Position numbers and translations under genes: made by a program. Under the pieces are notes generated by a model, which worked only from the letters and a program-made list of their open reading frames with translations, was not told the origin of the DNA and searched no databases. DNA of 42,862 nucleotides, taken from the IMG/VR virus record IMGVR_UViG_3300044733_003195, positions 1 to 42,862 of that record. The stretch is one strand, 5' to 3'. The DNA is from a virus. This document shows, in pieces, positions 1 through 42,862 of the stretch. Each line of letters starts with the position of its first letter. The first letter of the stretch is position 1.

Positions 1-1814
1 ACTTTGTTTCCTGATATCACAGAATTAATTCTTGTTTTTTCTCTTTCAAGTTCTTCAAGTCTCAAGTCAGCTTTGATTAGTTGTCCGTCAATCTTTTGGT
101 TTTCTTGGATCTTATCTTGAATCTCTTCCCACCTTTTAAGTTTATCTTTCAACGCACTTATTTTCAAATCACAACTTTCAACTGAGATCTCATATTTTTC
201 TTTAACAAGTTTGTTTTTTTCATATTCGTCAAACTCCTTCTTTAACTGAACAAAACTTTGTTCTTTGCGGGATAAATCCTGCATAAGTGTCGTTTTTGTG
301 GTTTTTTGCACAATAAGTCCATCTAACTCTGCAATTTTAGAATTTGTAATTGCTGCGTTCATTAACTCAATACCACAGTGTTCACATTTGATACCACCCT
401 CCACTTCAGACTTCAGTTTGTTGATTGATGAAATTTCTGTATCAATCTGAACCACTTCTTTATAAACCTCGTTATATTGTTCTTTAACCTCATCGTGTTT
501 ATCTTCGTGATAATACTCACTTGGTTCAACAACTTTAAGTTCATTGATTTTAGAAATGTAACCTTTCTTTTCAAAATCAATGGTGTTGATTTCTTCTTGA
601 ACTTTGTCTGTATTTAATCTACTAATCTCTTGATCAATGTTGGAATGTTTTTTCTTTAACATGTCATCTCGGTAATTTTTACCTTTAGTAATGGCATCTT
701 CAACATTTGTCAATTCTTTGGTGTTATCCTCAATTTGAGTGTTAAGTGTTTGAATTGACTCCTGGTGAGTTGTGATATCATCTTTTAATTGTTCAGATGA
801 ATACACATTTGACAACTTTTGTTTTGAGAATTCTCCGTAGATTTCTTTTGCAACCTCTTCTTTTTTCTTCAAGAACTCCAAACCCATAAATCTTGATAAT
901 ACCTGACCTCTAGCGGTTGGCTTTGACTCTAACAATTCTTCAAGGTTTGATCCTGTTGTTAGAATTGTCATTAAAAAGTCTTCTTTGGTTCCAATTGAGG
1001 TTTTGATAAACGCTTCAGTTTCTCTTCTTTGTTCTCCTGTGAAGTTTAATAAAGTTCCGTCAGATAGTTTTTTAAAGAAGTCCAATTCGGTTTTAACATT
1101 CCATTCACCTTTTTTGGACATCTTTCTTTCGATGTTTCTAACAATCACATAATCCTCACCATCAATTGTGATTTCACCTTTGACATAAACCTTGTCTTTG
1201 TTTGAAAATCTGTTGAATATTTCTTCCGCCTTAGTTGTCTTTGTTGTTTCATTAAAGAACAAGAACATTAAAAGATCCACCGTCAATACGGTTTTACCTC
1301 CGAAATTTGGTGGATCTGACTCTACCACCACAATACCATTTAACTTATCAAAATCTAATCTTTGATTTTCACCATATGATAAAAAGTTTGAGAACTCAAT
1401 GTTTCTAATATACCACTTTTTAAACTGAGTTTGGTTTTCTTCATCACCATTCATTTTGTTTTCAACCATTTTATTGATCCCCAAAATATCGTCAGTTTTA
1501 TCTTTATAACCTTTTGACTCAATAAAATTCTTCAACAAGTCCAACTGATAATTCGCATCACTGATATTTACTGAAACATCAATTGATTGCATATCCTCAG
1601 TTTGAGTTTGTTTTGCTTTGGTTAAAACATTTACATTGGTTGTGTTATACTTTTTTGAAAAGTAATGTTTAACACTTTTAATCTTATCTTGTGTAAAGTT
1701 TTCCGGTAAATCTTCCCAAACAACTTGTATAATAGGGTTTTCAAAACTTGAAAAGTCCAAATCTTTTATCATAATATTGTAGTTAAATAATTTTGGTGGA
1801 TTAAATAAATCCAT
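1..1814 (-). CDS. 46: gp46-like recombination endonuclease ATPase (Rad50/SbcC family) with a fused gp47 C-terminal domain; 3' end outside window
   Basis: Large subunit of the phage Mre11-Rad50-type complex that processes DNA ends for recombination-dependent replication. About 604 residues are visible and the frame runs open off the window edge. Residues 1-133 are not part of a normal Rad50/gp46 protein. The usual N-terminus begins near W134 (IRNIEFSNFLSYGE). A P-loop follows at about 168-175 (PPNFGGKT, K174), then long charged coiled-coil helices, and a zinc hook CEHC with C477 and C480. The C-terminal signature and Walker B motifs lie outside the window. The first glycine expected in the P-loop is a proline. 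The 133-residue extension resembles the C-terminal part of T4 gp47 and starts with a DLFNP box that is repeated at the end of the upstream gp47. The ATG is 2 nt past the previous stop codon. Confidence 0.88.
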   Translation of the reverse strand, partial: MDLFNPPKLFNYNIMIKDLDFSSFENPIIQVVWEDLPENFTQDKIKSVKHYFSKKYNTTNVNVLTKAKQTQTEDMQSIDVSVNISDANYQLDLLKNFIESKGYKDKTDDILGINKMVENKMNGDEENQTQFKKWYIRNIEFSNFLSYGENQRLDFDKLNGIVVVESDPPNFGGKTVLTVDLLMFLFFNETTKTTKAEEIFNRFSNKDKVYVKGEITIDGEDYVIVRNIERKMSKKGEWNVKTELDFFKKLSDGTLLNFTGEQRRETEAFIKTSIGTKEDFLMTILTTGSNLEELLESKPTARGQVLSRFMGLEFLKKKEEVAKEIYGEFSKQKLSNVYSSEQLKDDITTHQESIQTLNTQIEDNTKELTNVEDAITKGKNYRDDMLKKKHSNIDQEISRLNTDKVQEEINTIDFEKKGYISKINELKVVEPSEYYHEDKHDEVKEQYNEVYKEVVQIDTEISSINKLKSEVEGGIKCEHCGIELMNAAITNSKIAELDGLIVQKTTKTTLMQDLSRKEQSFVQLKKEFDEYEKNKLVKEKYEISVESCDLKISALKDKLKRWEEIQDKIQENQKIDGQLIKADLRLEELEREKTRINSVISGNK

Positions 1815-1816
1815 TT

Positions 1817-2098
1817 TTATTCTTCTGTCGGTAGTTCCTCTTCAAATTCTTTATTGATTTTTGCAGACTCCTCTTCGTTTGGTGTGAATTTGAATGCGTG
1901 ATCGATCGTTTTGTGTTCAACGACTTCATAATTTATATCGTTTCCTTGAACTTCGACTTTCATTTCATCGTCTTTTAATTTCTTCAATTGCTCTTGCAAC
2001 AAAAGATCAAATGCTTTTTGCATTCCTGATTTTTGTTGTTTGATTTTTGCATTTCTTTTTGCGACTTTTGCTCTGTGTTCTTTGGCTTTCTTACCCAT
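1817..2098 (-). CDS. small charged protein of unknown function
   Basis: A 93-residue protein with a very basic first third (MGKKAKEHRAKVAKRNAKIK) and an acidic tail ending EEELPTEE. It has no membrane segment, cysteines or catalytic motif that I recognise. The basic head could bind nucleic acid, but that is a guess from charge alone. It is the last gene before the gp46-like gene, 2 nt away, so the two are probably translated from one message. It belongs to the block of genes that separates gp47 from gp46. Confidence 0.7.
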   Translation of the reverse strand: MGKKAKEHRAKVAKRNAKIKQQKSGMQKAFDLLLQEQLKKLKDDEMKVEVQGNDINYEVVEHKTIDHAFKFTPNEEESAKINKEFEEELPTEE

Positions 2099-2112
2099 TT
2101 TATTTGTTTTTA

Positions 2113-2466
2113 TTAGTTATTACTCGGTCTATTTTCTTCAAACCATTCAATTATTCCGTTAATTGCCCATACAGCACCAGCGGACAACATTCCATCAAAA
2201 AATATTGAAAAATATTTATTAAGTCCAATCATTTCGTGCCAAGGAGCAAAAAGAATTAATGATAAGAAAAAACCCACCCATGTTGATGTGCATAATACGC
2301 ACTGAATTAAACTAGATACAAACGCAAAGACAGGTCTTAAAATAACCCACCCCACATTTGGTTGTGCGTTTTTATGTATCCAATTTCTCAACCCATTAAA
2401 GATTGATCCATAAACCAGAATATTTGTCATTCCATAAGCTGCGATAACCCACATTAATATAATCAT
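2113..2466 (-). CDS. small inner-membrane protein with a CxxCxxxW motif
   Basis: A 117-residue hydrophobic protein. Membrane segments are likely near residues 3-22, 40-55, 62-75 and 88-105, with short polar loops. The motif CVLCTSTWVG near residues 57-66 recalls small phage and bacterial membrane proteins of the DUF1360 type; that family call is from memory of the motif and unconfirmed. The function is unknown. The start overlaps the end of the upstream coiled-coil gene by 4 nt (ATGA), which suggests translational coupling and perhaps a joint role at the membrane. Confidence 0.72.
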   Translation of the reverse strand: MIILMWVIAAYGMTNILVYGSIFNGLRNWIHKNAQPNVGWVILRPVFAFVSSLIQCVLCTSTWVGFFLSLILFAPWHEMIGLNKYFSIFFDGMLSAGAVWAINGIIEWFEENRPSNN

Positions 2467-3302
2467 ACTCTTCTATTTAAATTTGATCCCCTCAGAAGAT
2501 AACCTTGATTTGGTCCATTCAGAAGTTCTCGGTTTATTTTTTCTAATTCTTTTATTTGTTCATTCTTTTGTTGTAATTCACTTCTTAGTTTTTGTAAAGT
2601 CTCTTGTAACATTTTTAACTTATTATTTGTTACAGGATCGTCTAACTTTTGTCTAAGTTCATCTAACTCATTATTCTTTTTAGACATTTCATTTTGGAAA
2701 AAAATTTCCATTTCTTCTGTTTTAGAAGTATGTTCTTGTCTGATATTGTCAATTTCTGCGGTCTTAATCAAAATTTCTCCGTTTAAGTGTTCTATTTTTG
2801 ACAACAATTCATTCAACTGTTCGGAATTTCTTAACAGTTCAATTTCCAACTTGGCGTTTTTTTCGCCAAGTTCATTTATTTGGTTGTCATCGGTGGTATA
2901 AATTATTTTCTCAACCACTCTATCAACCGGAACTTCTTTAATAACTTCTTTAACAACTACCCTATCAACAGGTATTTCTTTTGTAACCTCAACAATCTTC
3001 TCAACTTCCTTTATTATTTCCACAGGAACCTCAACGATCTTTTCAACTTCTTTAATTACCTCAACTTCTTTGATAACTTCAACAGGAACTTCCACACGTT
3101 TTTCACGGATCACCTCAATTTCTACCCGTTTTTCCTCTTCATTATCCGTTTTTCCCAAAAAACCATATTTTTTAATATCGAATCCTTGTTTGAAACATAG
3201 GTATATGAAATTATCAATATCCTTGATTTCTTGTGATTCACAAAATGCGGACACCGCCTGCATTGTTTCCTTATTAAATATTTTGGAGTTTTTCAAATCC
3301 AT
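2463..3302 (-). CDS. Glu/Val-repeat coiled-coil protein of unknown function
   Basis: A 279-residue protein in three parts. The first 50 residues are a short ordinary domain. About residues 60-140 are a low-complexity repeat of the type EVPVEVIKEVE / EKIVEVPVEIIKEVE / KEVPVDRVVEK. The rest, about 145-265, is a long heptad-like coiled coil rich in Leu, Glu, Lys and Asn. No enzyme motif is visible. The first 29 nt of the gene overlap the end of the HNH gene in another frame. An ATG at 3263 (residue 14) would avoid that overlap and is an alternative start. It ends in an ATGA overlap with the membrane-protein gene. Confidence 0.75.
   Translation of the reverse strand: MDLKNSKIFNKETMQAVSAFCESQEIKDIDNFIYLCFKQGFDIKKYGFLGKTDNEEEKRVEIEVIREKRVEVPVEVIKEVEVIKEVEKIVEVPVEIIKEVEKIVEVTKEIPVDRVVVKEVIKEVPVDRVVEKIIYTTDDNQINELGEKNAKLEIELLRNSEQLNELLSKIEHLNGEILIKTAEIDNIRQEHTSKTEEMEIFFQNEMSKKNNELDELRQKLDDPVTNNKLKMLQETLQKLRSELQQKNEQIKELEKINRELLNGPNQGYLLRGSNLNRRV
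2890..3130 (-). repeat. degenerate Val/Glu coding repeat
   Basis: Imperfect short repeats on the coding strand give alternating Val/Ile/Glu/Lys units such as EVPVEVIKEVE. The DNA copies differ at many third positions, so the repeat looks maintained at the protein level and is not a fresh DNA expansion. The same region is open on the opposite strand, where it is almost certainly a non-coding shadow. Confidence 0.6.
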
Positions 3303-3933
3303 TTATTTTATTTCTTTTTTCTAAATTTTCATACCACCATAATGGTTGTAGGTTTGTATAATGACAAAGTTTATAAATTTCTTCTTCTGTTTTAGCTGAT
3401 ATTAATGGTATAATATGGTCTATGTGCCAACCATTTAATCCATAATTTTCCCAACACATACCATCTTTAAATTGTTTTTCTATATGTTCTTTTAATTTTT
3501 TAGGTTCACACCCAACAATTTTAAAAGTTTCGTTATCTTGTCTTATATTTTTACTTTTTAAAAAATTTTTTACCCTACTCCGAACATTACACCTTATTTT
3601 AAATTCAATGTCATTTTTTTTTCTATTTTTTGTGTAATTACTTATTTTTTCTTTGTTATTCTCTCTGTATTTCTTTGCGCGTTTTTTTTGTTCCTCTTTA
3701 GTTCTATCTCTATATTTTTTTTTAGTTTCTTTATGTTTTTCAACATTTCTAAAATAAGTTTCTCTATTCCAACTATTAGTTTTTTCTTTATTTATCTTTC
3801 GGTAATTATTTACCCTATTTCTAGTGCAATTTTTGCACTCATTTCTTAGACCGTCTTTTGAATCGGACCTTGAGTGGAAGTCGTTTATAACTTTTTCAGT
3901 ATGACAAATATTACAAATTTTTGTATTTTTCAT
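3274..3933 (-). CDS. HNH homing endonuclease
   Basis: A 219-residue free-standing HNH nuclease, expected to cut a specific DNA site and so spread its own gene. An N-terminal zinc-finger-like pair of CxxC motifs (C7, C10, C33, C36) is followed by a Lys/Arg-rich region (about 40-130) that should bind DNA. The HNH core lies at about 165-210: WHIDHIIPL with H170, D172 and H173, then YTNLQPLW with N194, and a final RNK. Its C-terminal 80 residues closely match the second HNH protein at the right end of the window. The start overlaps the end of the RHH gene by 23 nt, and the end overlaps the start of the coiled-coil gene by 29 nt. It lies between the separated parts of gp47 and is the most likely agent of that split. 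Confidence 0.9.
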   Translation of the reverse strand: MKNTKICNICHTEKVINDFHSRSDSKDGLRNECKNCTRNRVNNYRKINKEKTNSWNRETYFRNVEKHKETKKKYRDRTKEEQKKRAKKYRENNKEKISNYTKNRKKNDIEFKIRCNVRSRVKNFLKSKNIRQDNETFKIVGCEPKKLKEHIEKQFKDGMCWENYGLNGWHIDHIIPLISAKTEEEIYKLCHYTNLQPLWWYENLEKRNKINGFEKLQNI

Positions 3934-4072
3934 CTTTATAATCTTTAAGTAATTTATTAACTAAAGAAGATAAATTGATGTGTAATGTTCGATAAAATTT
4001 CAATAATTCTGGTTCAAGAGCAACAGAAACTTTGGTCTTTTTATCTTCATCTTTTATTTTTAATCTTCCCAT
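3911..4072 (-). CDS. small ribbon-helix-helix DNA-binding protein (probable)
   Basis: A 53-residue open frame with the layout of a ribbon-helix-helix regulator. It has a basic head (MGRLKIKDEDKKTK), one beta strand (KVSVAL), a first helix (EPELLKFYRTLHI), a turn with N-L-S-S, and a second helix (SLVNKLLKDY). Such proteins dimerise through the strand and bind operator DNA. The gene sits directly after the truncated gp47 and overlaps the HNH start by 23 nt, so it may control or be co-expressed with the nuclease. A TATTTAT motif lies 5 nt before its start. A short ORF without a close relative could be spurious, but the pattern of hydrophobic residues fits the fold well. Confidence 0.68.
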   Translation of the reverse strand: MGRLKIKDEDKKTKVSVALEPELLKFYRTLHINLSSLVNKLLKDYKDEKYKNL

Positions 4073-4077
4073 ATATT

Positions 4078-4084
4078 ATAAATA
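4078..4084 (-). promoter_or_regulatory. TATTTAT motif before the RHH/HNH cassette
   Basis: TATTTAT in coding orientation, 5 nt before the start codon of the small RHH gene. It matches the motif found before the late genes of this window. Confidence 0.35.
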
Positions 4085-4117
4085 TCTTGATCTATTAAAA
4101 AGTGTGAATAATATTAA

Positions 4118-4897
4118 TTAAATATTAATTAATTTTTCTGTTCCATTTTCTACGTCTTCAAAAGACTTGATTGAAAATTTTAACAGTGGTCTTGGATTGA
4201 ACAAATCAACATATTTATATTCTTTAGTTTGAACGTCGTAAATACCGTATCCGTGTTTTCCTATACTTTCCCCTACATTCTGCTGAATTGTAGACCCAAT
4301 CATATAACCCTTTCCCGTATTGAATTTAAACTCTTGTCTTTTGTGAATGTCTCCACATAATACGGTTTCAAGTCCATCAAACTTTTCAACATCATACGCC
4401 TCTTCACCAAAGTCAAAACCAAGGTCTGTTTTCATTCCTTGGATTGGTCCGTGAAATAGTCCAATTCTTTTACCTTTTGATTCGGTAATGTCAGGTGGAA
4501 TATTTCCTTGACATTGTGAATACACACACCAACTGATGTTTTCATCTTCATATACACCTCTATCTTTGAGGTATAAAATATTTTCATTGTGTAAGGTATT
4601 TACAATAGGTGTAATGGAGTCTAACCTGTCTTGATTGTTTAAATTTGTATCATGGTTTCCAAGTATAATGATTGTTTTTGCAACAAACGAACATTCGGTT
4701 AATAACCATCTAACCATCTCAATAAGTTCAGGTGTCATTTGGTTTTTAGAATGAACAAGATCTCCAGTAAATACAATACGATCAGGTTCTAACTTTCTCC
4801 ATTGTTCAATTGCAGTTTCTAAAATTGATTTATACAAATCATGATCTTTAAAAAGACGGATGTGTAAGTCAGAAAAATGTATTAGTTTTTTAATCAT
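4118..4897 (-). CDS. 47: gp47-like recombination nuclease (Mre11/SbcD family), N-terminal part
   Basis: Mn-dependent metallophosphoesterase subunit that works with gp46 on DNA ends. All phosphoesterase motifs are present: SDLHI (D10, H12), GDLVH (D46, H49), GNHD (N81, H82, D83), FHG (H149) and GDIH (D183, H185). The protein is 259 residues, against about 339 for T4 gp47, and it ends 30 residues after the sequence YVDLFNPRPLLKF. The C-terminal region that in this family contacts the Rad50 partner is missing here. A matching segment is found at the front of the gp46-like gene 2.3 kb downstream. The start codon overlaps the stop of the preceding small gene by 1 nt (TAATG). Confidence 0.9.
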   Translation of the reverse strand: MIKKLIHFSDLHIRLFKDHDLYKSILETAIEQWRKLEPDRIVFTGDLVHSKNQMTPELIEMVRWLLTECSFVAKTIIILGNHDTNLNNQDRLDSITPIVNTLHNENILYLKDRGVYEDENISWCVYSQCQGNIPPDITESKGKRIGLFHGPIQGMKTDLGFDFGEEAYDVEKFDGLETVLCGDIHKRQEFKFNTGKGYMIGSTIQQNVGESIGKHGYGIYDVQTKEYKYVDLFNPRPLLKFSIKSFEDVENGTEKLINI

Positions 4898-5070
4898 TAT
4901 ACTCTGTTAATTGGATCTTTTTTAAAAATGTATCCTGAAATATCTAAGTATCTTAAAATTTCTCGATCTCCTTCAATTGTAGTTTGACCTTTTTTTATTT
5001 TAATCATTCCAATTTTGTATTCAAAAAGGTTTGCTAACCATTTTACAAATAGTGCTGGTATTCTTTTCAT
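4897..5070 (-). CDS. small protein of unknown function (57 aa)
   Basis: A 57-residue frame (MKRIPALFVKWLANLFEYKI at the start, then KKGQTTIEGDREILRYLDIS). The first 20 residues form an amphipathic or weakly hydrophobic basic helix. No family is recognised. It is placed in a run of small genes with 1-4 nt overlaps: its ATG overlaps the upstream TGA (ATGA), and its TAA shares one base with the gp47 ATG. That tight fit supports a real, coupled gene. Confidence 0.55.
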   Translation of the reverse strand: MKRIPALFVKWLANLFEYKIGMIKIKKGQTTIEGDREILRYLDISGYIFKKDPINRV

Positions 5071-5195
5071 AATTTTTCTATATTAATTTTAAATTTACCT
5101 GATGAAACTAATTCAATTATTTTTTTACATTCATTCCAATTTTTACAACCACTTAAATCAATTGTAATTAGATTTCTTTTTAGTTTTTTAATCAT
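5067..5195 (-). CDS. very small protein of unknown function (42 aa)
   Basis: A 42-residue frame starting MIKKLKRNLITIDLSGCKNW. It follows directly on the stop codon of the previous gene and ends in an ATGA overlap with the next one. The sequence is Lys-rich with two cysteines (C16, C21). No family is recognised; its position in the coupled chain is the main support. Confidence 0.45.
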   Translation of the reverse strand: MIKKLKRNLITIDLSGCKNWNECKKIIELVSSGKFKINIEKL

Positions 5196-5390
5196 TTAAT
5201 TGTTCGGTTTAACCGTTATTGTATATTTTTTACTATAACTTGAATCTTCGTTTTTTACTAATACACCTAATACAGGAATAAATGCGTCTGGATCAAACAT
5301 GATAGGTGTAACAACAACACCTAGATTGGAGTTTTCTAATGCAATTTTTAATTGTTGCGCAATTTCCATTTCATTAATTTCTTTTTTCAT
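5196..5390 (-). CDS. small protein of unknown function (64 aa)
   Basis: A 64-residue mixed alpha/beta-looking protein (helix EINEMEIAQQLKIALENS, then strands GVVVTPI and PVLGVLVKNE). No cysteines or catalytic motif. It is part of the early small-gene run between the PD-(D/E)XK nuclease and gp47, and abuts the next start with no gap. The function is unknown. Confidence 0.6.
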   Translation of the reverse strand: MKKEINEMEIAQQLKIALENSNLGVVVTPIMFDPDAFIPVLGVLVKNEDSSYSKKYTITVKPNN

Positions 5391-5402
5391 TTTTTCATTT
5401 TT

Positions 5403-5645
5403 TTAATCATTTAATTGTTGTTTATCATTACAATATACCTCAAATGGTGGTTTATATGGGTCGTCTTTTACAGGAAATGGATTTACTGGTATTGGTATTC
5501 TAAATGGTTCAGAAATATCAATCTTGTTACTTTCTTTCACCAAATTCATCTTTTCAATAATTGGTGCAATATCAATATTTTTATCTTCTAATTTTCCATG
5601 AAGGTAACCTTGTAACCAAATATAAAATTCTTTATAACTTAACAT
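5403..5645 (-). CDS. small protein of unknown function (80 aa)
   Basis: An 80-residue protein starting MLSYKEFYIWLQGYLHGK. A short aromatic helix of this kind is seen at the front of several small phage proteins, but I cannot name a family. The second half is rich in proline (PFRIPIPVNPFPVKDDPYKP) and probably extended. Its start overlaps the end of the previous small gene by 7 nt. Confidence 0.6.
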   Translation of the reverse strand: MLSYKEFYIWLQGYLHGKLEDKNIDIAPIIEKMNLVKESNKIDISEPFRIPIPVNPFPVKDDPYKPPFEVYCNDKQQLND

Positions 5646-5785
5646 AATTCTCTACAATAAAGATTTATTAACATTTTTCTTGCTAACTTAAATTCTTTAG
5701 CCCTATTAAGTTTTAAAACATAAAGAGTTGCAATATTTTGAAGGTGTGGATACGCCTCAGTAATAGTCATTTTTCTTGTTTCCAT
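5639..5785 (-). CDS. small helical protein of unknown function (48 aa)
   Basis: I place the start at 5785 (METRKMTITEAYPHLQNIA), which shares one base with the stop codon of the zinc-ribbon gene upstream (TAATG). A start at 5827 is also open but would bury 42 nt in that gene. The 48-residue product looks fully helical and basic, and ends KMLINLYCRELC. The function is unknown. Confidence 0.55.
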   Translation of the reverse strand: METRKMTITEAYPHLQNIATLYVLKLNRAKEFKLARKMLINLYCRELC

Positions 5786-6003
5786 TAGTCGATAAACAAT
5801 TCGAAGTCTGCATTCACATGACCACAATCATTACACATGTAAGTTGGGAATGGAACAATTGTATCTTCATGACTTCCTGTTAATAATTTTGGAACTTTCT
5901 TCAACATTGTTATTTCTTTGAAGAACTTTGACTCGCACTTTTCACATTTAATTGTTTCTTGACTTCGTAAGTCGATTTTTGGTCTAATAATATCGTCGCT
6001 CAT
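5785..6003 (-). CDS. small zinc-ribbon protein
   Basis: A 72-residue protein with two CxxC pairs (CEKC near residue 20 and CNDC near residue 57) separated by about 35 residues, the spacing of a zinc ribbon. Such small phage proteins can bind nucleic acid or a host protein such as RNA polymerase, but nothing here decides between these. It lies between the PD-(D/E)XK nuclease and the run of small genes. Confidence 0.7.
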   Translation of the reverse strand: MSDDIIRPKIDLRSQETIKCEKCESKFFKEITMLKKVPKLLTGSHEDTIVPFPTYMCNDCGHVNADFELFID

Positions 6004-6027
6004 AATTTTTTTTATTTAAAATATAGT

Positions 6028-6891
6028 TTATTTTTTAATTTTAGTCAAATATTCTTTCATATCCATTTCAAGTATTGTGTTCATAGTTTTTTTGGAAACT
6101 CTATACTCAATAAATTCCCTTTCATCTGTTATTAAAACGACAATACAACCTAAAAGTGATAGGTCTTCATATTTGGTTCCTTCTAACATTTTTAATAGTA
6201 GCTTACCGTAAAAAGGTAATTGGGTGTTGTAGTGACCAAGAGCATTATCAGGTAGGTCTCTAAATGGTATTTTCATGTTTCTAGTGTATTTTGTAACCGA
6301 AAAGTTTTTTGGTTTATTTGTTTTCCAGTCTGTTATTAAAATACCAACTTTACCATTTGTTCCAACAACCAACCATACCTTATCTGGTTGTCCCGTATAA
6401 CCCAATTCAGGATGACCCAAAACAATTTCCGTATCAATCAACATACAACCCCTTTCTCTTAAAAGATCAATATATCTTTTACCTGCAACGATCATAGAAT
6501 CACTTTTAATAATCTGTTCAGGATCACATTCAAATATTGGTTGACGAACATCTTTTTTTATATCAAATTCTTTTAATGTATGTTCTTCCAAAAAGAAGTG
6601 ACAACGAGAACCCAAGTTTGTTGACTTTCTTCCCGCTTCAACCCACTCTTCCATTAGTCTTTTGGCTTCATCTAAGTCCCAACCGGCTTTGTTAAATGCT
6701 GCTTGTTCTGTTGGAAAATCCTCATAAAAAAGTTTCATGACTTTTGATACTGATGGGAAATCGTTTCTTAATTCTCCACTTTCATCCAACATCGTATATG
6801 TGTGAGTTTCTTCCTCAAACGTGAGTTGAAATTCTTTTTGTTTTTGAGATATGATTTCTCTAATCTCTTGTGCTATTTTTGTTAAATCCAT
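6028..6891 (-). CDS. PD-(D/E)XK nuclease, RecB/Cas4-like
   Basis: A 287-residue nuclease of the RecB-nuclease branch. Visible motifs in order are LGSRCHFFLEEH (H98, E102), TEIVLG (E155), TGQPD (D170), ITDWKTNK (D188, K190) and QLPFY (Q224, Y228). These are the metal and QxxxY motifs of Cas4/AddB/RecB-type exonucleases. It overlaps the primase stop codon by 1 nt, so the pair is probably co-translated. A role in processing DNA ends during replication or recombination, or in degrading host DNA, is an inference from the family and from the neighbouring gp46/gp47 and primase genes. Confidence 0.85.
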   Translation of the reverse strand: MDLTKIAQEIREIISQKQKEFQLTFEEETHTYTMLDESGELRNDFPSVSKVMKLFYEDFPTEQAAFNKAGWDLDEAKRLMEEWVEAGRKSTNLGSRCHFFLEEHTLKEFDIKKDVRQPIFECDPEQIIKSDSMIVAGKRYIDLLRERGCMLIDTEIVLGHPELGYTGQPDKVWLVVGTNGKVGILITDWKTNKPKNFSVTKYTRNMKIPFRDLPDNALGHYNTQLPFYGKLLLKMLEGTKYEDLSLLGCIVVLITDEREFIEYRVSKKTMNTILEMDMKEYLTKIKK

Positions 6892-7790
6892 TATCTAATA
6901 ATATAATAATATTCATCTTTTATTTCGCCTCGAAGATCAGCAATATCCTTTTCATCGGGCAACTTTATTAATTTAATTCTACCCCAAAGTTCACCTCCAT
7001 GAAGTTCGTGATAAAGATTGACTGAGTTTTCCCAAGCATCAGCGTCCAAACAAATAATAATATCACCTTTTGCCTTTTTGTAGATTGTATCAAACAAAAG
7101 TTCTGACATGTGTTTACCTAACATCGGAATTGCATTATCCAAAAACAACCCATCAAAGGCTCCCTCCACCAAGAAAATATCTTTGTTCCAATCTATAAGA
7201 CTTTCCCAAAATATAATTTTTTCTTTTTCGGCCTCAGGGTTTCGATATTTCGCCCTACTGTGTGGATCCCAACTTCTTGCAATATAATAATTCAGTTCAC
7301 CATCAATATTATATGATGGAATAACAATTCGACCAGCATGGTCTCCTTTATCACAAAATCCAATTTGATATTTTTCAATCATATAATCGGTTATTCCCCG
7401 ATTATGTAGGTAATTTATAGCGGCTTTTCTAACGGGGTAAATAGGACTTGAGTCTTTGAATAAAGTAAATCTATCGGGAAGTCTAAGTTTTTTCTTCGGT
7501 TTTTCTCGTTTGACAACCGTCTCTGGTTTTAATACTTGATAAAGTTTTTTTTGTTTTTTATTTCCGTATTTGTCAAATAACTTCCCAAGCGGTCCATGAG
7601 TTCCCTCACTATCTGAACACGCCCAACACTTGAACACGTTGTCTATATAATTAACTTCTAGATTATGTTTATTTCTGTCGTCATCACATACCGGGCAGTT
7701 GAATGATATTTGACCTCGGTTTGGGTAGTGAAGTCCGTGGTCACCCAAAACATCCTCTAATAACTCAACTAACGCATCATTTTCATCCAT
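6891..7790 (-). CDS. DNA primase, DnaG/gp61 type
   Basis: A 299-residue primase that should make RNA primers for lagging-strand synthesis with the gp41-type helicase encoded at 39.7-41.1 kb. An N-terminal zinc-binding module has C32, C35, C55 and C58 (CPVC ... CWAC). A middle region (about 105-200) corresponds to the DnaG catalytic N-subdomain. The TOPRIM motifs are VEGAFDG (E209, D213) and CLDADAW (D249, D251). There is no helicase domain, as in T4 gp61. It is the first gene of the leftward early run. The start at 7790 faces the plus-strand fibre genes across a 75 bp divergent gap. Confidence 0.88.
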   Translation of the reverse strand: MDENDALVELLEDVLGDHGLHYPNRGQISFNCPVCDDDRNKHNLEVNYIDNVFKCWACSDSEGTHGPLGKLFDKYGNKKQKKLYQVLKPETVVKREKPKKKLRLPDRFTLFKDSSPIYPVRKAAINYLHNRGITDYMIEKYQIGFCDKGDHAGRIVIPSYNIDGELNYYIARSWDPHSRAKYRNPEAEKEKIIFWESLIDWNKDIFLVEGAFDGLFLDNAIPMLGKHMSELLFDTIYKKAKGDIIICLDADAWENSVNLYHELHGGELWGRIKLIKLPDEKDIADLRGEIKDEYYYIIR

Positions 7791-7851
7791 CCCTTACAAT
7801 ATAATTAAAAACTTTCAATCTATCAACTACACAAACTTTTGTATTTTTTTA

Positions 7852-7858
7852 TATTTAT
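7852..7858 (+). promoter_or_regulatory. TATTTAT motif before the plus-strand fibre genes
   Basis: TATTTAT on the plus strand, 7 nt before the ATG at 7866, within TATATTTATATTTG. It is the only plus-strand example of the late-gene motif and it fits the only plus-strand transcription unit. Confidence 0.4.
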
Positions 7859-7865
7859 ATTTGTT

Positions 7866-8087
7866 ATGCCATCAGTAATCAATATTAATCTTTTGAATGG
7901 TGCGTCTCCTTTTGACGTTTATACTTGTGATACAGGATATACAACTTGTGTCTATGTTGCAACTATAACAAGTGGTGAAATACCTTATCAATTTGTTGTT
8001 CCTTCAATTCAACAAAGTATGAATCCAATAGGTCTAAAAGTTATTGATAATACCGGATGTATAATAGAACAAAATTTAATAGTATAG
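7866..8087 (+). CDS. small virion-like protein, paralogue of the 101-residue protein at 17.3-17.6 kb
   Basis: A 73-residue protein starting MPSVININLLNGASPFDVY. I chose the ATG at 7866 over the one at 7839 because it follows the TATTTAT motif and gives an N-terminus like its paralogue. Both proteins share a pattern: a strand-rich head, then PYxF, and near the end K-(V/I)-I-D-x-x-G-C followed by (I/V)-x-(E/S). They are probably small beta-sandwich parts of fibres or baseplate. It sits 1 nt before the large fibre gene and is likely expressed with it. Confidence 0.7.
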   Translation: MPSVININLLNGASPFDVYTCDTGYTTCVYVATITSGEIPYQFVVPSIQQSMNPIGLKVIDNTGCIIEQNLIV

Positions 8088-8088
8088 T

Positions 8089-9582
8089 ATGGCATGTAAT
8101 AATTTAGGGTCTTTTGCGGGTGATACTTTTCCGAGTATAAGTCTTTGTCTTTCAGCTCAGACAGCGACTGTTTATGGTGATAGTTTAACAATAGGTCAAA
8201 CACTTTATTCAGATTCTGGTTGCACAATGGCTTTTACCTCATTTTTTTTAAGTAATGGTATTAACTTTTATGAAACAGATTTGTCAGGAAATATCGTAGG
8301 TATTACAGGATGTTCTTGTAATTATTTAGGAACTTTTTCATCTAACTCTCTTCTTGACGCTAGTTGTTTAGGTCCATTTACTTTTGACGTATATGGTGCC
8401 GATTTAAATTTTGGAACGACTCTATATTCAGACTCTGGGTGTTCGATCAATTATACCACAACATTTTTATCCGACGGTGTTACAGTATATGGTGTTGATT
8501 TGGCCGGTGTGATCGAAAGTATTGACAGTTGTTCGTGTGGGGCATTTATTTGCGTTCATAATGACAATATTTATGATGACCAATATGAGTTAGCTGGTGT
8601 TTTTGCAGGACAAAACTATTACACAGGACAAACAACAAATTTTAATATATTTTACTCTTTAAGTGAATCTCGTTGGTGTTTGGCCCAAAACCTTGGTGAT
8701 CCTTGCGAACAATTTGGTCCTTATGGAAGCGTTTCGTCCTGTCCTGATTTCGATGACTCAGTTGCCTATACCGGTTTTTGTGTAACAACTACAACAACGA
8801 CAAACCCTTGTTCTTCGTTGGATTTTGATGCTGTTTTCGATTGTTATATTCCACCTACACCAAGTGTTACGCCAACACTTACTCCGACACCAACTTTAAC
8901 ACCGACACCAAGTTCGTCGGATCCTTGTGGTGGAAGACTTATAAGCGCTTCTATGTTTATTATAACATCAACGCCGACTCCGACTCCAACCCCAACACCC
9001 AGTCCCTCACCCGAGATTACAAGACCTTGTAATTTTCCTGGTGAAGCAATTTTTACCTCTATTGATGAAATTATACAATGTTCAAATAGTAAAAAATTCC
9101 AAGATTGTTTTACAGGAATTAACTACTACACGACAGAAACATTAAGTCTTTCGGGTTCAACTTCGTTAAAAGAAGGTTATGTGTATAACGCAACTATAAA
9201 TAATGAAGTTTATTGTGTGATTTTCCAAGGACTTGTATCTAACATAAGTGGTGTTGATGTAATTCAGTTGAATTACGAAGTGGGGGATTCATTAACGGGA
9301 GCTTGTTTAAGTTGTGTTGTAATTGAATCTCCAACGCCAACACCTACACCAACACCTACTATGACCGTAACTCCTTCGGCAAGTCCTTGTGTGTCTTACG
9401 AATATAGAGTGACAAATCTAAGTCCTGGTAAAATTTCAATTGATTATATTAGTTGTTCCTCAGGTTTACAGTCTCAAACAATTCAACCAAACTCTTCAAT
9501 AATCGTGTGTTCTTCAGGGTCTATTTCAACAGGAAATCCACAGAACATTCAAATACAACAACTTCCATCTATTTGTGTGTAA
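8089..9582 (+). CDS. tail-fibre or adhesin-like protein with Pro/Thr linkers
   Basis: A 497-residue protein. Residues about 5-75 and 76-148 are two tandem copies of a module holding TLYSDSGC and ending in CSC. Then comes a domain (about 150-235) related to one in the minus-strand 552-residue protein (a Trp-containing strand, then a YTGFC end). A short Thr run, two Pro/Thr-rich linkers (about 255-310), a globular domain, a third linker (about 415-425) and a small C-terminal domain complete it. The shape is that of beads on stiff linkers, as in host-binding fibres. No enzyme motif is visible. It and its small neighbour are the only plus-strand genes in the window. Confidence 0.78.
   Translation: MACNNLGSFAGDTFPSISLCLSAQTATVYGDSLTIGQTLYSDSGCTMAFTSFFLSNGINFYETDLSGNIVGITGCSCNYLGTFSSNSLLDASCLGPFTFDVYGADLNFGTTLYSDSGCSINYTTTFLSDGVTVYGVDLAGVIESIDSCSCGAFICVHNDNIYDDQYELAGVFAGQNYYTGQTTNFNIFYSLSESRWCLAQNLGDPCEQFGPYGSVSSCPDFDDSVAYTGFCVTTTTTTNPCSSLDFDAVFDCYIPPTPSVTPTLTPTPTLTPTPSSSDPCGGRLISASMFIITSTPTPTPTPTPSPSPEITRPCNFPGEAIFTSIDEIIQCSNSKKFQDCFTGINYYTTETLSLSGSTSLKEGYVYNATINNEVYCVIFQGLVSNISGVDVIQLNYEVGDSLTGACLSCVVIESPTPTPTPTPTMTVTPSASPCVSYEYRVTNLSPGKISIDYISCSSGLQSQTIQPNSSIIVCSSGSISTGNPQNIQIQQLPSICV
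8851..9012 (+). repeat. Pro-Thr coding repeats
   Basis: Two stretches (about 8851-8920 and 8967-9012) encode alternating Thr-Pro units; a shorter third lies at about 9331-9385. The codons for both residues vary freely from unit to unit, so protein composition and not DNA repetition is being kept. Similar linkers occur in the 835-residue protein on the other strand. Confidence 0.7.
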
Positions 9583-10294: not shown

Positions 10295-12802
10295 CTAAAA
10301 ATCTAACTTAACGACGTATTGTTGAATTCCTTGTCTGAGAACAGGCGATTGTAGTTTTGACATTACAAGAATATCTTTGTTTTCATCCAACAAAGCAATT
10401 TCACTAACATATGATTTAGTCCCAAATGTCCATGTTGGGTTTTGTGACACCAAAAACTCTGTTGAACTAAGGTTGATCTTATATTTCATTTCGTAGATAG
10501 TTGCTTGAATGTCGGTTTCAAGATTTCCGTAGAAATAATACTCATCTCCAAAGTTTAATTTCGGACCAACCGTATTCAATGGAACTAAGTCAATATAGTT
10601 GTTTAAGTTATATAGTGGTGCGGAATTATAGTTCGAATCTGTAATTACAAAAGTTGTTCCTGTAAGTGAATTTTGGGTTACGTATCCATTAATAAATTGA
10701 TCGCTAATCTGACTTGTAAAATCAATAATTCTCCAAGACTGAGGACTTGGTTTTTGACCCACCGGTGTTTTTTGTGCTAATACTTGGAATTGCGTAGCGT
10801 AAAACCCTTGAGGAACAACACAAGTAGGACATTGTGTTGTTGTAGTCGTCAATGGACTTATTGTAGTTGTTGTAGTTGTTGTTGGTAAAAAAGTTGTTGT
10901 AGTTGTTGTTGGTGAGAATCCAGGTTGAACTAAACAAGGGAACTCGGCCCCGAATCTAACGGCCACGTTCTGTGGTGTATCAGGGGTGCAAACATTTTGA
11001 GTTCCAATAACACTTGTATAATAATTACTATGTAATGAATTAGTAAACTCGTTGGTGTTTGAAAATCTATAAGTAACCCATAGTGTCTCTTGTGATCCTG
11101 TTAAAACACCCGATGTATTTGATGTTCCGCAAGTGTTTGGGGTTATAAGTGAAACTTGAGGTGCCGGTAATGTCCAGTTTCTATTTGATTTATATGATAA
11201 TGCCGCAACAATTTCTTCATCATCTATTACGATTGTTTGTGAGTCAGGATAAACTTTTCCAATTCTACTCGGAAGACCATTTGGTTGAGCAAAAGTGTCC
11301 CATAAATTATAATATCTCAAACCAGGTTGGTTCATGTTTTGGGATATTGTTGATTTTGTGTATTGGACTTGGAATAGGTTTTTTCCATCAAATCCTGGAG
11401 GATCTACATAGAAAGTTTGTCCAAAACAACATTCAGGATTTTTGTGCCACATCAAAGTTGGGATATGTAATTTGAAGTTTCTTGCCTGTCCTTGGGTATT
11501 CTCGGGATTCTGACTATCAAAGGGTTGCATTGCAAACTTTTCACCATAAAAGAAATCAATTGTTTGATTTGTGTAATGAATTATTGCAATCGCTTTCTGA
11601 TCTTGTGGTGTTACAACTTTTTTCTCACCAAAAGAATTGTAGTAATATACGTCATCACTTGATGTTTGGGCACTTGTCGTATATCCAAAATACTCTTTTT
11701 GTCCAAGATATTGTATAGAACCAAATTTTGTATAATCTTCAAATTGTGAAGAAATAAGACCAGCAGGACTTTCACTCCAAGGAATATTCATATTCCATAT
11801 TTTAACATCAAATTGGTCAGTATCACAAACTGATTCAAAATCAATCACATTTTGAGCCCAATGTCTTTCAGGAGTAAAACTATCGTATAAAGGAACCATT
11901 CTTGGTGGATAAATTATTGCTCTTGCAACACAATCAACCGATAGGTTTGTGTAATCAGGTGTGTTTCTATCTAACGTAAGTTTGTCTTGACAAACGTTAA
12001 TAATTCTATAAGTAAGAGTTGGGTAACAACTAAATAAAACTTTTTCGCAATTTGGTGGTGGTGGAACGGGACATACAGGACTTGGTGATGGTGTCAAGCA
12101 AGGAGTCGCCGTTGGTGATGGTGTTGGTGATGGTGATGCGCATGGGTTTGTTGGCGAGATAGAAGGTGTTGGTGTTGGACTTAAACTTGTTAGTGGTGTT
12201 GATGTGTTTGTTGGTGTTGGGGTTGGTGTAGGGAATCCTGTGCAACTACAATCGTTTTTAGCCAAACCATCGTAAAAAATTGTAATAATATCACCAATTT
12301 GAGGGGTTTTTGTGTTATAAGGGTCGCAATCAATTTTATAAACAGAAATTTCATTTGTTCCGTTCAAACTAAACATATTCACAACATAATTAGGTGTTGA
12401 GACGTATTGATTGTTTGTAAAAACCTTCCAATTGATTGTATTGGCGGTTGTGTTTCCTGTAAAAAATCCTCTCATGGCAGCCCTGTTAAAAACAGGTTCT
12501 ATTTGTGAATCCATAAATGGTATTCCATATATATTAGTTTGATCTTGATCAACTAAATACGGGTATTTTATATATTGACGATTTGACTCTGGAACACCTG
12601 AACTATTTTGTGAGTTAAATTCAGGTTGTAAAATAACGGTATCACTTTGATTGTATGTTGATGGTAATGAATTATAACTAATTTCACTATCTCCAATTGC
12701 AAAATAGGTAACTCTAAAATTACCTTCAGATAATCTCTGTCTTCCTGTGTCAGTTACTCTTGTATTAACTAATCCTGATGTGTTTTTAATTATATATGCC
12801 AT
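10295..12802 (-). CDS. large tail-fibre-like protein with Pro/Thr and poly-Thr linkers
   Basis: An 835-residue virion-type protein. The N-terminus (TDTGRQRLSEGNFRVTYFAI, then GDSEI) looks like an attachment domain; I recall similar phage N-termini but cannot name the family. Residues about 188-253 are a Pro/Thr/Ser linker with scattered cysteines. A large central domain follows, then a Thr-rich linker (about 630-660) with runs of five to seven Thr, then a C-terminal domain that probably carries receptor contacts. No catalytic motif is visible. It is the last structural gene of the leftward cluster and has a TATTTAT motif 6 nt before its start. Confidence 0.78.
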   Translation of the reverse strand: MAYIIKNTSGLVNTRVTDTGRQRLSEGNFRVTYFAIGDSEISYNSLPSTYNQSDTVILQPEFNSQNSSGVPESNRQYIKYPYLVDQDQTNIYGIPFMDSQIEPVFNRAAMRGFFTGNTTANTINWKVFTNNQYVSTPNYVVNMFSLNGTNEISVYKIDCDPYNTKTPQIGDIITIFYDGLAKNDCSCTGFPTPTPTPTNTSTPLTSLSPTPTPSISPTNPCASPSPTPSPTATPCLTPSPSPVCPVPPPPNCEKVLFSCYPTLTYRIINVCQDKLTLDRNTPDYTNLSVDCVARAIIYPPRMVPLYDSFTPERHWAQNVIDFESVCDTDQFDVKIWNMNIPWSESPAGLISSQFEDYTKFGSIQYLGQKEYFGYTTSAQTSSDDVYYYNSFGEKKVVTPQDQKAIAIIHYTNQTIDFFYGEKFAMQPFDSQNPENTQGQARNFKLHIPTLMWHKNPECCFGQTFYVDPPGFDGKNLFQVQYTKSTISQNMNQPGLRYYNLWDTFAQPNGLPSRIGKVYPDSQTIVIDDEEIVAALSYKSNRNWTLPAPQVSLITPNTCGTSNTSGVLTGSQETLWVTYRFSNTNEFTNSLHSNYYTSVIGTQNVCTPDTPQNVAVRFGAEFPCLVQPGFSPTTTTTTFLPTTTTTTTISPLTTTTTQCPTCVVPQGFYATQFQVLAQKTPVGQKPSPQSWRIIDFTSQISDQFINGYVTQNSLTGTTFVITDSNYNSAPLYNLNNYIDLVPLNTVGPKLNFGDEYYFYGNLETDIQATIYEMKYKINLSSTEFLVSQNPTWTFGTKSYVSEIALLDENKDILVMSKLQSPVLRQGIQQYVVKLDF
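10832..10912 (-). repeat. poly-threonine linker coding repeat
   Basis: Minus-strand ACA/ACT/ACC-rich tract that encodes three Thr runs separated by short Pro, Ile and Leu spacers inside the 835-residue fibre-like protein. The tract reads as imperfect GTTGTTGTA-type repeats on the plus strand and could slip during replication. Confidence 0.6.
12051..12236 (-). repeat. Pro-Thr-Ser linker coding repeat
   Basis: Minus-strand tract encoding a roughly 60-residue Pro/Thr/Ser linker with several lone cysteines, between the N-terminal and central domains of the 835-residue protein. Third codon positions vary as in the plus-strand linkers. Confidence 0.65.
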
Positions 12803-41556: not shown

Positions 41557-42567
41557 TTACTTTTTTTTGTTTCTAAATTTTTGTTTTTCTTTTCTTGTCA
41601 ATTTGAGAAATGGTTTTAAAAAACTTACCCAAGCGTCGTCACCCTTCGGTAAGTATTTAAAAAACCCGTCCTCCATCATCATTCGAATTAGATTTCTATG
41701 TCCTCTTCCGTCGGGATCCATCGACTCTGAGTAATATAGTCCAACTAATTCTTTTTCCTCTTCATTCAAAAGTGGATTTTCTAAATTGACAAGTTTTTCA
41801 TTTATTACAAAAAACTCATCACCAAAAATACCCTCTTTTGTTTTCCCACTAAGTAGGTTTTGAAGAGCTACGTTTCCTTTTTCTTCTTTTAAAAGTTTTT
41901 CACTTTTTTCTAAAATATAGGACAGTTCTACCCTTTCTTCAAGTAGTTCAGGAAACATTTTTACCAAAGTCTTCTCACCAAGATAGAATATTCCATCAAT
42001 ATTGTCGGAACTATCACCGGTGAGGATTTTGATTGTTTTAACATTATAGTGGGGAACTTCAATATCATGAAGTTTTATTTTGTCTCCCAACTTATAATAT
42101 TGTTTTGTGGATGGTGAATAAATGGAAACTTTTTCTCCAATTAATTGAGTTAAATCTCTATCACTCGAGAAGATTGTTTTTTCTTCGTCTAAAGACACTT
42201 TACAGTAGTGAGCAATCAAGTCATCAGCTTCTGCGTGTTCTGTCTCCAGTTGTCTTACAAACATCTCTTCAAGGTATTGTTTAACCCTTCCTTTTTGTTC
42301 CAAAAAAGATTCCTCTTTCGACTCTGTTTCAGATGATTTACGATTTAACTTATACTTAGGATAGATTAATCTTCTCTGAGCCGATGAAGTTTTAGAGTCC
42401 CAAAGAACCACAACTTTGTTATAGTTGTGTTCTTCTAAGAATTTACGAAGAGTGTTTAGAAAGTGCCAAACTCCACCAACATGTTTTCCATTATGATAGA
42501 AATCTCTAACACCATGAAAACCAATTTTTAAAAGGTTGTTTCCGTCAACCAATAATGTTTTATTCAT
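41557..42567 (-). CDS. rnh: 5'-3' exonuclease / FLAP nuclease, T4 RNase H type
   Basis: A 336-residue FLAP-family nuclease that removes RNA primers and 5' flaps during lagging-strand synthesis. Acidic metal-site motifs are LLVDGNN (D8), LWDSK (D57), HAEADDLIAH (E113, D115, D116), SSDRDL (D136, D138) and LTGDSSDNIDGI (D185, D188), the last opening the helix-hairpin DNA-binding part. Length is near T4 RNase H (305). The first 8 nt overlap the end of the HNH gene at the window edge. Confidence 0.92.
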   Translation of the reverse strand: MNKTLLVDGNNLLKIGFHGVRDFYHNGKHVGGVWHFLNTLRKFLEEHNYNKVVVLWDSKTSSAQRRLIYPKYKLNRKSSETESKEESFLEQKGRVKQYLEEMFVRQLETEHAEADDLIAHYCKVSLDEEKTIFSSDRDLTQLIGEKVSIYSPSTKQYYKLGDKIKLHDIEVPHYNVKTIKILTGDSSDNIDGIFYLGEKTLVKMFPELLEERVELSYILEKSEKLLKEEKGNVALQNLLSGKTKEGIFGDEFFVINEKLVNLENPLLNEEEKELVGLYYSESMDPDGRGHRNLIRMMMEDGFFKYLPKGDDAWVSFLKPFLKLTRKEKQKFRNKKK

Positions 42568-42862
42568 TTATCATACCATTAGATGGTTCAACAATTTTGT
42601 TTCCTTTTTTCATATTTTCAATCGCCCACAGAGGTTGTAAGTTAGTATAATGGCATAACTTGTAAAGTTCTTCTTCAGTTTTTGCCGAAGATAATGGAAT
42701 TATATGATCTATATGCCACTCTACTCTATTTTCCCAAGTCATACCGTTACTAAATTGTTTTTCTAAGTGTTCTTTTAATTCTTGAGGTGTGCATCCAACA
42801 ATATCAAAAGTTTTTTTTGATCGGTATTTTAAATATCTATTAACAGAATTTCTCATATCAAG
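42560..42862 (-). CDS. HNH homing endonuclease, 5' end outside window
   Basis: C-terminal part of a second HNH nuclease. The frame stays open to the window edge (Leu-Asp before the first Met at 42856), and the visible part aligns with residues 110-210 of the HNH protein at 3.3-3.9 kb, so the real start is probably outside. Motifs are WHIDHIIPL and HYTNLQPLW, plus the shared VGCTPQELKEHLEKQF and GMTWEN block. It lies immediately upstream of the FLAP nuclease gene and overlaps its start by 8 nt. Confidence 0.85.
   Translation of the reverse strand, partial: LDMRNSVNRYLKYRSKKTFDIVGCTPQELKEHLEKQFSNGMTWENRVEWHIDHIIPLSSAKTEEELYKLCHYTNLQPLWAIENMKKGNKIVEPSNGMINE

What the first reader, a model, noticed from the sequence alone, without database searches (positions are those of the whole stretch)
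1..4897. gp47 is cut short and its C-terminal domain appears fused to gp46
The gp47-like protein (4118-4897) keeps all five phosphoesterase motifs but has only 259 residues, against about 339 in T4. The gp46-like gene (start 1814) carries 133 residues before the normal Rad50-type N-terminus (W134 onward). That extension resembles the part gp47 lacks: in T4 gp47, as I recall it, the tail has a strand like SVRVIVTEV and a final helical segment, and here the extension has PIIQVVWEDL and a later IDVSVNISD plus a helix. Both parts also share a box at the break: VDLFNPRPLL near the end of gp47 and MDLFNPPKLF at the start of the gp46 gene. The simplest reading is that an ancestral fused or adjacent gp47-gp46 was split, leaving a short duplicated segment, and that the Rad50-binding end of Mre11 is now covalently attached to Rad50. 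I know no described case of this arrangement in a phage.
Basis: partly seen in the sequence, partly recalled or inferred. Interest (0 to 1): 0.85.

Follow-up and report, generated by a model that had tools for sequence, protein, structure and literature searches.

The report
Phage Mre11 nuclease split into Rad50
In a large group of environmental phages the DNA-repair nuclease Mre11 is cut in two inside one of its domains, and the severed tail, which normally grips the partner motor protein Rad50, is built into Rad50 itself; this shows how a two-part repair machine was fused and then cut again at a different place.

Summary
gp47 (4118-4897, 259 aa) has the whole Mre11 phosphoesterase domain and then stops. 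The gp46 gene (3-1814, running off the window) has 133 residues before the Rad50 N-terminus. By profile, gp47 matches positions 9-255 and gp46 residues 38-148 match 276-386 of natural single-chain Mre11-Rad50 proteins of other phages: one Mre11 cut in its capping domain, with cap half plus Rad50-binding helix-loop-helix fused to Rad50. All 150 close-relative loci with a full gp47 (76 distinct proteins) keep a 259-260-aa gp47; 62 of 80 distant loci are also split, 12 fused. A rooted tree puts all splits in one clade (97/92) with fused forms outside: fusion, then one fission. Full fusions are already published; the displaced fission was not in the papers I searched. The 'duplicated box' as a scar of the break is not supported: the leader MDLFNPP is absent from the deepest split lineages. 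In some relatives it reads QL[DN]LF, the bacterial sliding-clamp-binding consensus. The HNH gene between the two is an optional late arrival. Likely mechanism: gp47's last strand and tail dock onto the half-cap carried by gp46. No complex was modelled.

The parts
4118..4897 (-). gp47: Mre11/SbcD-like nuclease subunit, 259 aa; phosphoesterase domain plus the first cap strand and the segment after it
   Evidence: Pfam Metallophos 1.3e-11; matches fused Mre11 model positions 9-255, E=4e-77
4121..4210 (-). gp47 residues 230-259: last nuclease strand (YVDL), cap strand 1 (PLLKFSIKS) and a tail in the place of the cap's first helix (EDVENGTEKLINI)
   Evidence: ends at fused-model position 254-264 in all split loci; position by analogy with E. 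coli SbcD QPMAVLKGDLASITAQLEQW
3..1814 (-). gp46: N-terminal part (604 of about 790 aa) of a Rad50/SbcC-like ATPase carrying the C-terminal half of Mre11
   Evidence: phrog_77 2e-24; complete homologues 790-795 aa
1740..1814 (-). gp46 leader, residues 1-25 (MDLFNPPKLFNYNIMIKDLDFSSFE); box MDLF, reading QL[DN]LF in some relatives
   Evidence: present in 33 of 35 core loci, 1 of 8 early-branching and 0 of 17 S2 loci; box pN/pS 0.05; QL[DN]LF found only at gp46 N-termini
1605..1739 (-). second half of the Mre11 capping domain, gp46 residues 26-70 (strand-helix-strand)
   Evidence: AF2 ext model: strand 28-35, helix 42-56, strand 60-67; collinear with fused proteins
1443..1565 (-). Mre11 helix-loop-helix (Rad50-binding) segment, gp46 residues 84-124
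   Evidence: hhalign to the fused family E=1.9e-6 over residues 82-125; AF2 helices 87-100 and 104-123
810..1415 (-). Rad50 N-lobe, gp46 residues 134-335, Walker A PPNFGGKT at 1290-1313
   Evidence: hhalign ext330 to fused family E=1e-30
375..386 (-). Rad50 zinc hook CEHC
   Evidence: sequence
1817..3302 (-). three genes (93, 117 and 279 aa) between gp46 and gp47; same trio in 126 of 142 relative loci
3274..3933 (-). endonuclease VII/HNH-type gene, optional insertion in the gap (homologue in 12 of 142 relatives, at varying positions)
   Evidence: phrog_1035 1.5e-21

Best explanation
The two genes together encode one Mre11 and one Rad50. The phage lineage descends from a phage with a single-chain Mre11-Rad50 fusion. 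That gene broke once, in the loop of the Mre11 capping domain between the segment after cap strand 1 and cap strand 2. Since then the nuclease with the first piece of the cap is made as gp47, and the rest of the cap, the Rad50-binding helix-loop-helix and Rad50 are made as gp46. Shown by sequence, profile and tree: the domain mapping, the conservation of the cut, the single origin and the direction fusion to fission. Inferred: gp47 docks non-covalently by adding its cap strand and tail to the half-cap on gp46, so the capping domain is rebuilt in trans and nuclease dimer plus Rad50 ATPase work as an ordinary Mre11-Rad50 DNA-end processing complex (recombination-dependent replication, host DNA breakdown), with the helix-loop-helix tethered to Rad50 in cis. 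Genes later moved between the two halves.
For: Profile of fused proteins: gp47 covers positions 9-255 (E=4e-77) and gp46 residues 38-148 cover 276-386 (E=6e-13); over all split loci gp47 ends at 254-264 and gp46 starts mostly at 276. hhalign: gp47 1e-61, gp46 N-terminus 1e-30. Same linker from helix-loop-helix to Rad50 as in fused proteins. AF2 model of a natural fused Mre11 part (pLDDT 85) has strand 245-253 / cut loop / strand 266-274, helix 278-291, strand 296-301, helices 325-339 and 344-359 and matches Mre11 chains in Mre11-Rad50 structures (3qg5 E=8e-14; 6s6v; 3tho). 62 split, 12 fused, 6 cut off among distant loci. Trees: split one clade, 97/92, fused forms outside when rooted on T4 and E. 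coli. Purifying selection on both halves. Only one Mre11-type nuclease gene in each of 12 contigs of 136-369 kb, apart from one weak partial extra hit. No Rfam match such as an intron.
Against: The extension alone folds poorly in AF2 (pLDDT 66) and finds no significant PDB match, as expected for half a domain but not positive proof. No multimer prediction was possible, so the docking is untested. The root rests on two long outgroup branches. L162, the fused sister of the split clade, is itself a long branch and lay inside the split clade in the nuclease-only tree.
Confidence: 0.85

Rival explanations
1. An ancestral gene was cut with duplication of a segment, so both halves carry the same DLFNP box and an extra copy of cap strand 1.
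For: The box pair ranks 1st-8th among about 140,000 profile window pairs and sits exactly at the break.
Against: The deepest split lineages start gp46 right at cap strand 2 (MNPFIKVTW in L353, MVPFIKVTWED in L347) or with an unrelated leader (S2 group, 0 of 17). No overlap is found against the fused profile.
Confidence: 0.1
2. The halves are rejoined by splicing (intron, split intein) or frameshift, so a normal single chain is made.
For: Such elements occur in the family: split inteins interrupt Rad50 at Walker A in L298, L302, L306, L308 and L312.
Against: No intein fragment at the gp47 end or gp46 start in any split locus; no Rfam intron in 1-8000; three conserved genes lie in the gap; the gp47 C-terminus and gp46 start are conserved as protein ends.
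Confidence: 0.02
3. The homing endonuclease in the gap caused the split in this phage.
For: An endonuclease VII/HNH gene lies in the gap (3274-3933), and fused genes of other phages are broken at GDIHK by about 0.9 kb, in LR756508 around an endonuclease-like gene.
Against: Homologue in only 12 of 142 relatives and at different places; the split is far older than this insertion. An ancient endonuclease origin cannot be excluded.
Confidence: 0.05
4. gp46's extension is a dead remnant and gp47 works alone as a minimal nuclease without a cap.
For: gp47 has the whole catalytic domain.
Against: pN/pS 0.21 on the cap/HLH part and conservation across two deep split clades.
Confidence: 0.05

Closest known systems
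Mre11/Rad50 (SbcD/SbcC) single-chain fusions: Mimivirus R555, Bacillus phage 0305phi8-36 and others (Yoshida et al. 2011, PMC3175470)
   Same: Mre11 cap and helix-loop-helix directly followed by Rad50 in one chain; same GDxH variant of motif V as R555
   Different: Those are complete fusions. Here the nuclease domain has been cut off again, inside the cap, and is a separate gene
Fused gp47-gp46 genes in Microcystis phage Mel-JY01, huge phage LR756501 and Tenacibaculum phage pT24
   Same: Homologous Mre11-Rad50 in the same order; LR756501 is the sister of the split clade
   Different: One ORF of 1066-1311 aa
T4 gp46/gp47 and E. coli SbcC/SbcD
   Same: Same two activities; T4 gp47 and SbcD align to the fused Mre11 profile, T4 including the cap
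   Different: Break lies at the end of Mre11, so Rad50 carries no Mre11 sequence
Fractured genes with split inteins or free-standing endonucleases
   Same: A gene in pieces with other genes between the pieces; seen in the same family at Walker A and at GDIHK
   Different: No intein at the gp47/gp46 junction; two mature proteins are expected

Membership tests
Mre11/SbcD (gp47 + gp46 residues 26-124) | Calcineurin-like phosphoesterase domain with metal motifs | tested here: met
   Pfam 1.3e-11, conserved motifs; motif V is GDIH, not GHxH
Mre11/SbcD (gp47 + gp46 residues 26-124) | C-terminal capping domain in the same chain | tested here: not met
   cap is divided: strand 1 in gp47, the rest in gp46
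Mre11/SbcD (gp47 + gp46 residues 26-124) | Rad50-binding helix-loop-helix in the Mre11 chain | tested here: not met
   it is in gp46 residues 84-124
Rad50/SbcC | ABC ATPase halves with Walker A, zinc hook, signature and Walker B | tested here: met
   Walker A and CEHC in the window; signature SGSGYERT and Walker B VIVFDEV in complete relative L146
Mre11-Rad50 single-chain fusion | nuclease and ATPase in one ORF | tested here: not met
   two ORFs with three or four genes between them
Split-intein or intron fractured gene | splicing element at the junction | tested here: not met
Sliding-clamp-binding protein | QLxLF motif | tested here: inconclusive
   exact in some relatives; the window has MDLF without the Gln; consensus in PMC11139829
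Active Mre11-Rad50 complex | ATP-dependent endo/exonuclease activity | not testable with these tools
   needs purified proteins

The most novel reading that the evidence does not exclude
After the fission the nuclease became an exchangeable subunit that docks by completing the half-cap domain built into Rad50, and the newly exposed gp46 N-terminus evolved a sliding-clamp-binding peptide (QLDLF, QLNLF or MDLF), so the phage Mre11-Rad50 is tethered to the replication clamp, perhaps the host's, since no beta-type or T4-type clamp was recognised in 12 long contigs.
Probability: 0.25. Interest if true: 0.75.

Novelty: new variant of a known kind. Interest (0 to 1): 0.62.

Why it matters
It gives an ordered series of separate, fused and re-split forms of a universal repair machine, and shows that Mre11 need not be one chain: a domain contacting DNA and Rad50 can be cut and shared between partners. 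That makes it testable whether the cap only has to be present or has to be covalently linked to the nuclease, a question bearing on how ATP-driven movement of Rad50 controls the Mre11 active site. For annotation it warns that short gp47 proteins in environmental phages are complete and that their gp46 partner carries the rest.

Tried and rejected
(1) PDB sequence search with the extension profile: no Mre11 hit (best E=1.3, unrelated). (2) AF2 of the extension alone: pLDDT 66, PDB fold search without significant match; replaced by folding a natural fused homologue. (3) Own-genome Pfam AAA_23 search: nothing. (4) LR756501-only scan of viral contigs: no relative. (5) Scan of bacterial genomes: none, so the host is not identified. 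(6) Duplicated-box idea: tested and not supported. (7) Intron: no Rfam match. (8) Homing endonuclease as cause of the split in this phage: not supported. (9) Search for a phage clamp, PF02916 and PF00712: none in 12 contigs, which does not exclude a divergent one.
Full report
What is in the window. On the minus strand the window holds a 259-residue Mre11-like protein (gp47, 4118-4897) and, after three or four other genes, the first 604 residues of a Rad50-like protein (gp46, 3-1814, running off the window edge). gp47 matches the calcineurin-like phosphoesterase family (E=1.3e-11) and the phage SbcD family; gp46 matches the phage SbcC family (2e-24).

Is it real and conserved? Two searches of viral contigs fetched 160 loci. 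Every locus with a complete gp47 (150; 76 distinct sequences) has a 259- or 260-residue gp47, and the complete gp46 proteins are 790-795 residues with the same N-terminal extension. Both parts evolve under purifying selection (pN/pS 0.16-0.33 for the gp47 tail, 0.21 for the cap/HLH part of gp46). So neither protein is broken.

What the extension is. Phages with one long ORF containing both activities exist: Microcystis phage Mel-JY01 (1066 aa), the huge phage LR756501 (1202 aa) and Tenacibaculum phage pT24 (1310 aa). Profile-profile comparison puts gp47 on residues 14-263 of such a fusion (E=1e-61) and the gp46 start, from residue 82 onward, on residues 327-559 (E=1e-30); the extension alone still matches the helix-loop-helix segment just before Rad50 (E=1.9e-6). 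A profile built from 24 fused proteins gives gp47 = positions 9-255 and gp46 38-148 = positions 276-386; over all split loci gp47 ends at 254-264 and gp46 resumes mostly at 276. The residue-level alignment runs through the cap strand-helix-strand and the linker to Rad50. A structure model of a natural fused Mre11 part (pLDDT 85) shows strand 245-253, a loop, then strand 266-274, helix, strand and two helices, and its best matches in the PDB are Mre11 chains of Mre11-Rad50 complexes (3qg5, 6s6v, 3tho; E about 1e-13). The cut therefore falls in that loop, inside the capping domain.

How widespread, and in which order. A search seeded with divergent members returned 80 more loci: 62 split, 12 fused, 6 cut off by contig ends or without a recognised partner nearby. 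In a careful tree of nuclease plus Rad50 N-lobe all split proteins form one group (bootstrap 97, SH-aLRT 92), both without and with outgroups; rooted on T4 and E. coli, all fused lineages lie outside and LR756501 is the fused sister of the split group. The nuclease-only quick tree put long-branched LR756501 inside the split group, so its exact place is uncertain. The reading is fusion first, then one fission.

The box and the leader. The similarity of VDLFNPRPLL (gp47) and MDLFNPPKLF (gp46) is among the best of about 140,000 window pairs, but the gp46 box occurs in 33 of 35 core loci, 1 of 8 early-branching and 0 of 17 S2 loci; some early forms begin directly at the cap strand. It was thus gained after the split and is not a scar of it. 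It is strongly constrained as protein (pN/pS 0.05). In a number of relatives gp46 starts a little upstream and the box reads QLDLF or QLNLF; among 4,720 ORFs of the loci searched the pattern Q[LM][DNS]LF occurs 32 times, always at a gp46 N-terminus. QLxLF is the strongest bacterial clamp-binding motif and QLNLF is that of Pol V (PMC11139829). The occurrences are related to each other, and the window's own form lacks the Gln, so this stays a hypothesis. No clamp of the two best-known families was recognised in 12 long contigs of the group.

The gap. The trio of 279-, 117- and 93-residue genes separates gp47 and gp46 in 126 of 142 relatives; an endonuclease VII/HNH gene like 3274-3933 is present in 12 and at varying places. 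It is a later guest. No intron family matches and no intein fragment is found at the junction.

Mechanism. Shown: one Mre11 in two pieces, the second piece covalently on Rad50; single origin; conserved. Inferred: gp47 binds gp46 by completing the cap; the helix-loop-helix packs on the coiled-coil root in cis; the complex does what gp46/gp47 do in T4. Each of 12 contigs of 136-369 kb has one Mre11-type nuclease gene only, apart from one weak partial hit, so no full Mre11 was seen that could replace it.

Known and new. Complete Mre11-Rad50 fusions were described in 2011, including a phage (PMC3175470). A jumbo-phage overview calls SbcC and SbcD practically universal in its set; the passages naming them say nothing of such a split (PMC7824862). 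Searches of the paper library found no description of an Mre11 split inside its cap with the tail on Rad50; subscription journals are largely not covered. I rate it a new variant of a known kind.

Noticed in passing
L302 6442-7044 and 8547 onward; also L298, L306, L308, L312: Rad50 in these split-clade phages is broken a second time at Walker A (GGK | T) by a split intein: a 29-30 aa N-fragment starting CVRADTKV and a roughly 120 aa C-fragment ending SHN before Thr; Pfam Intein_splicing 2e-5 to 4e-4, below its cut-off.
   Followed up: partly
L163 4950-9175 (LR756508); L208-L211, L214: Single-chain Mre11-Rad50 genes of other phages are interrupted at the GDIHK motif of the nuclease by about 0.9 kb; in LR756508 the insert holds a gene with a TnsA-like endonuclease domain.
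   Followed up: partly
window 3274-3933 and 42560-42862: Two related endonuclease VII/HNH-type genes, one in the gp47-gp46 gap and one at the other window edge beside the flap-nuclease-like gene.
   Followed up: partly
L215 3304-6547: Fused-type gene broken in the nuclease domain into two overlapping frames (224 and 860 aa, overlap ATGAAAAAGGTTAG): frameshift, error or a third way of splitting.
   Followed up: no
window 4118-4897: Motif V is GDIH instead of GHxH throughout this phage Mre11 family, as in Mimivirus R555; what this does to metal binding is untested.
   Followed up: no
window 8089-9582 and 10295-12802: Large proteins with Pro-Thr-Ser repeat stretches (TPTPTP) and TTTTTT runs among structural genes.
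   Followed up: no
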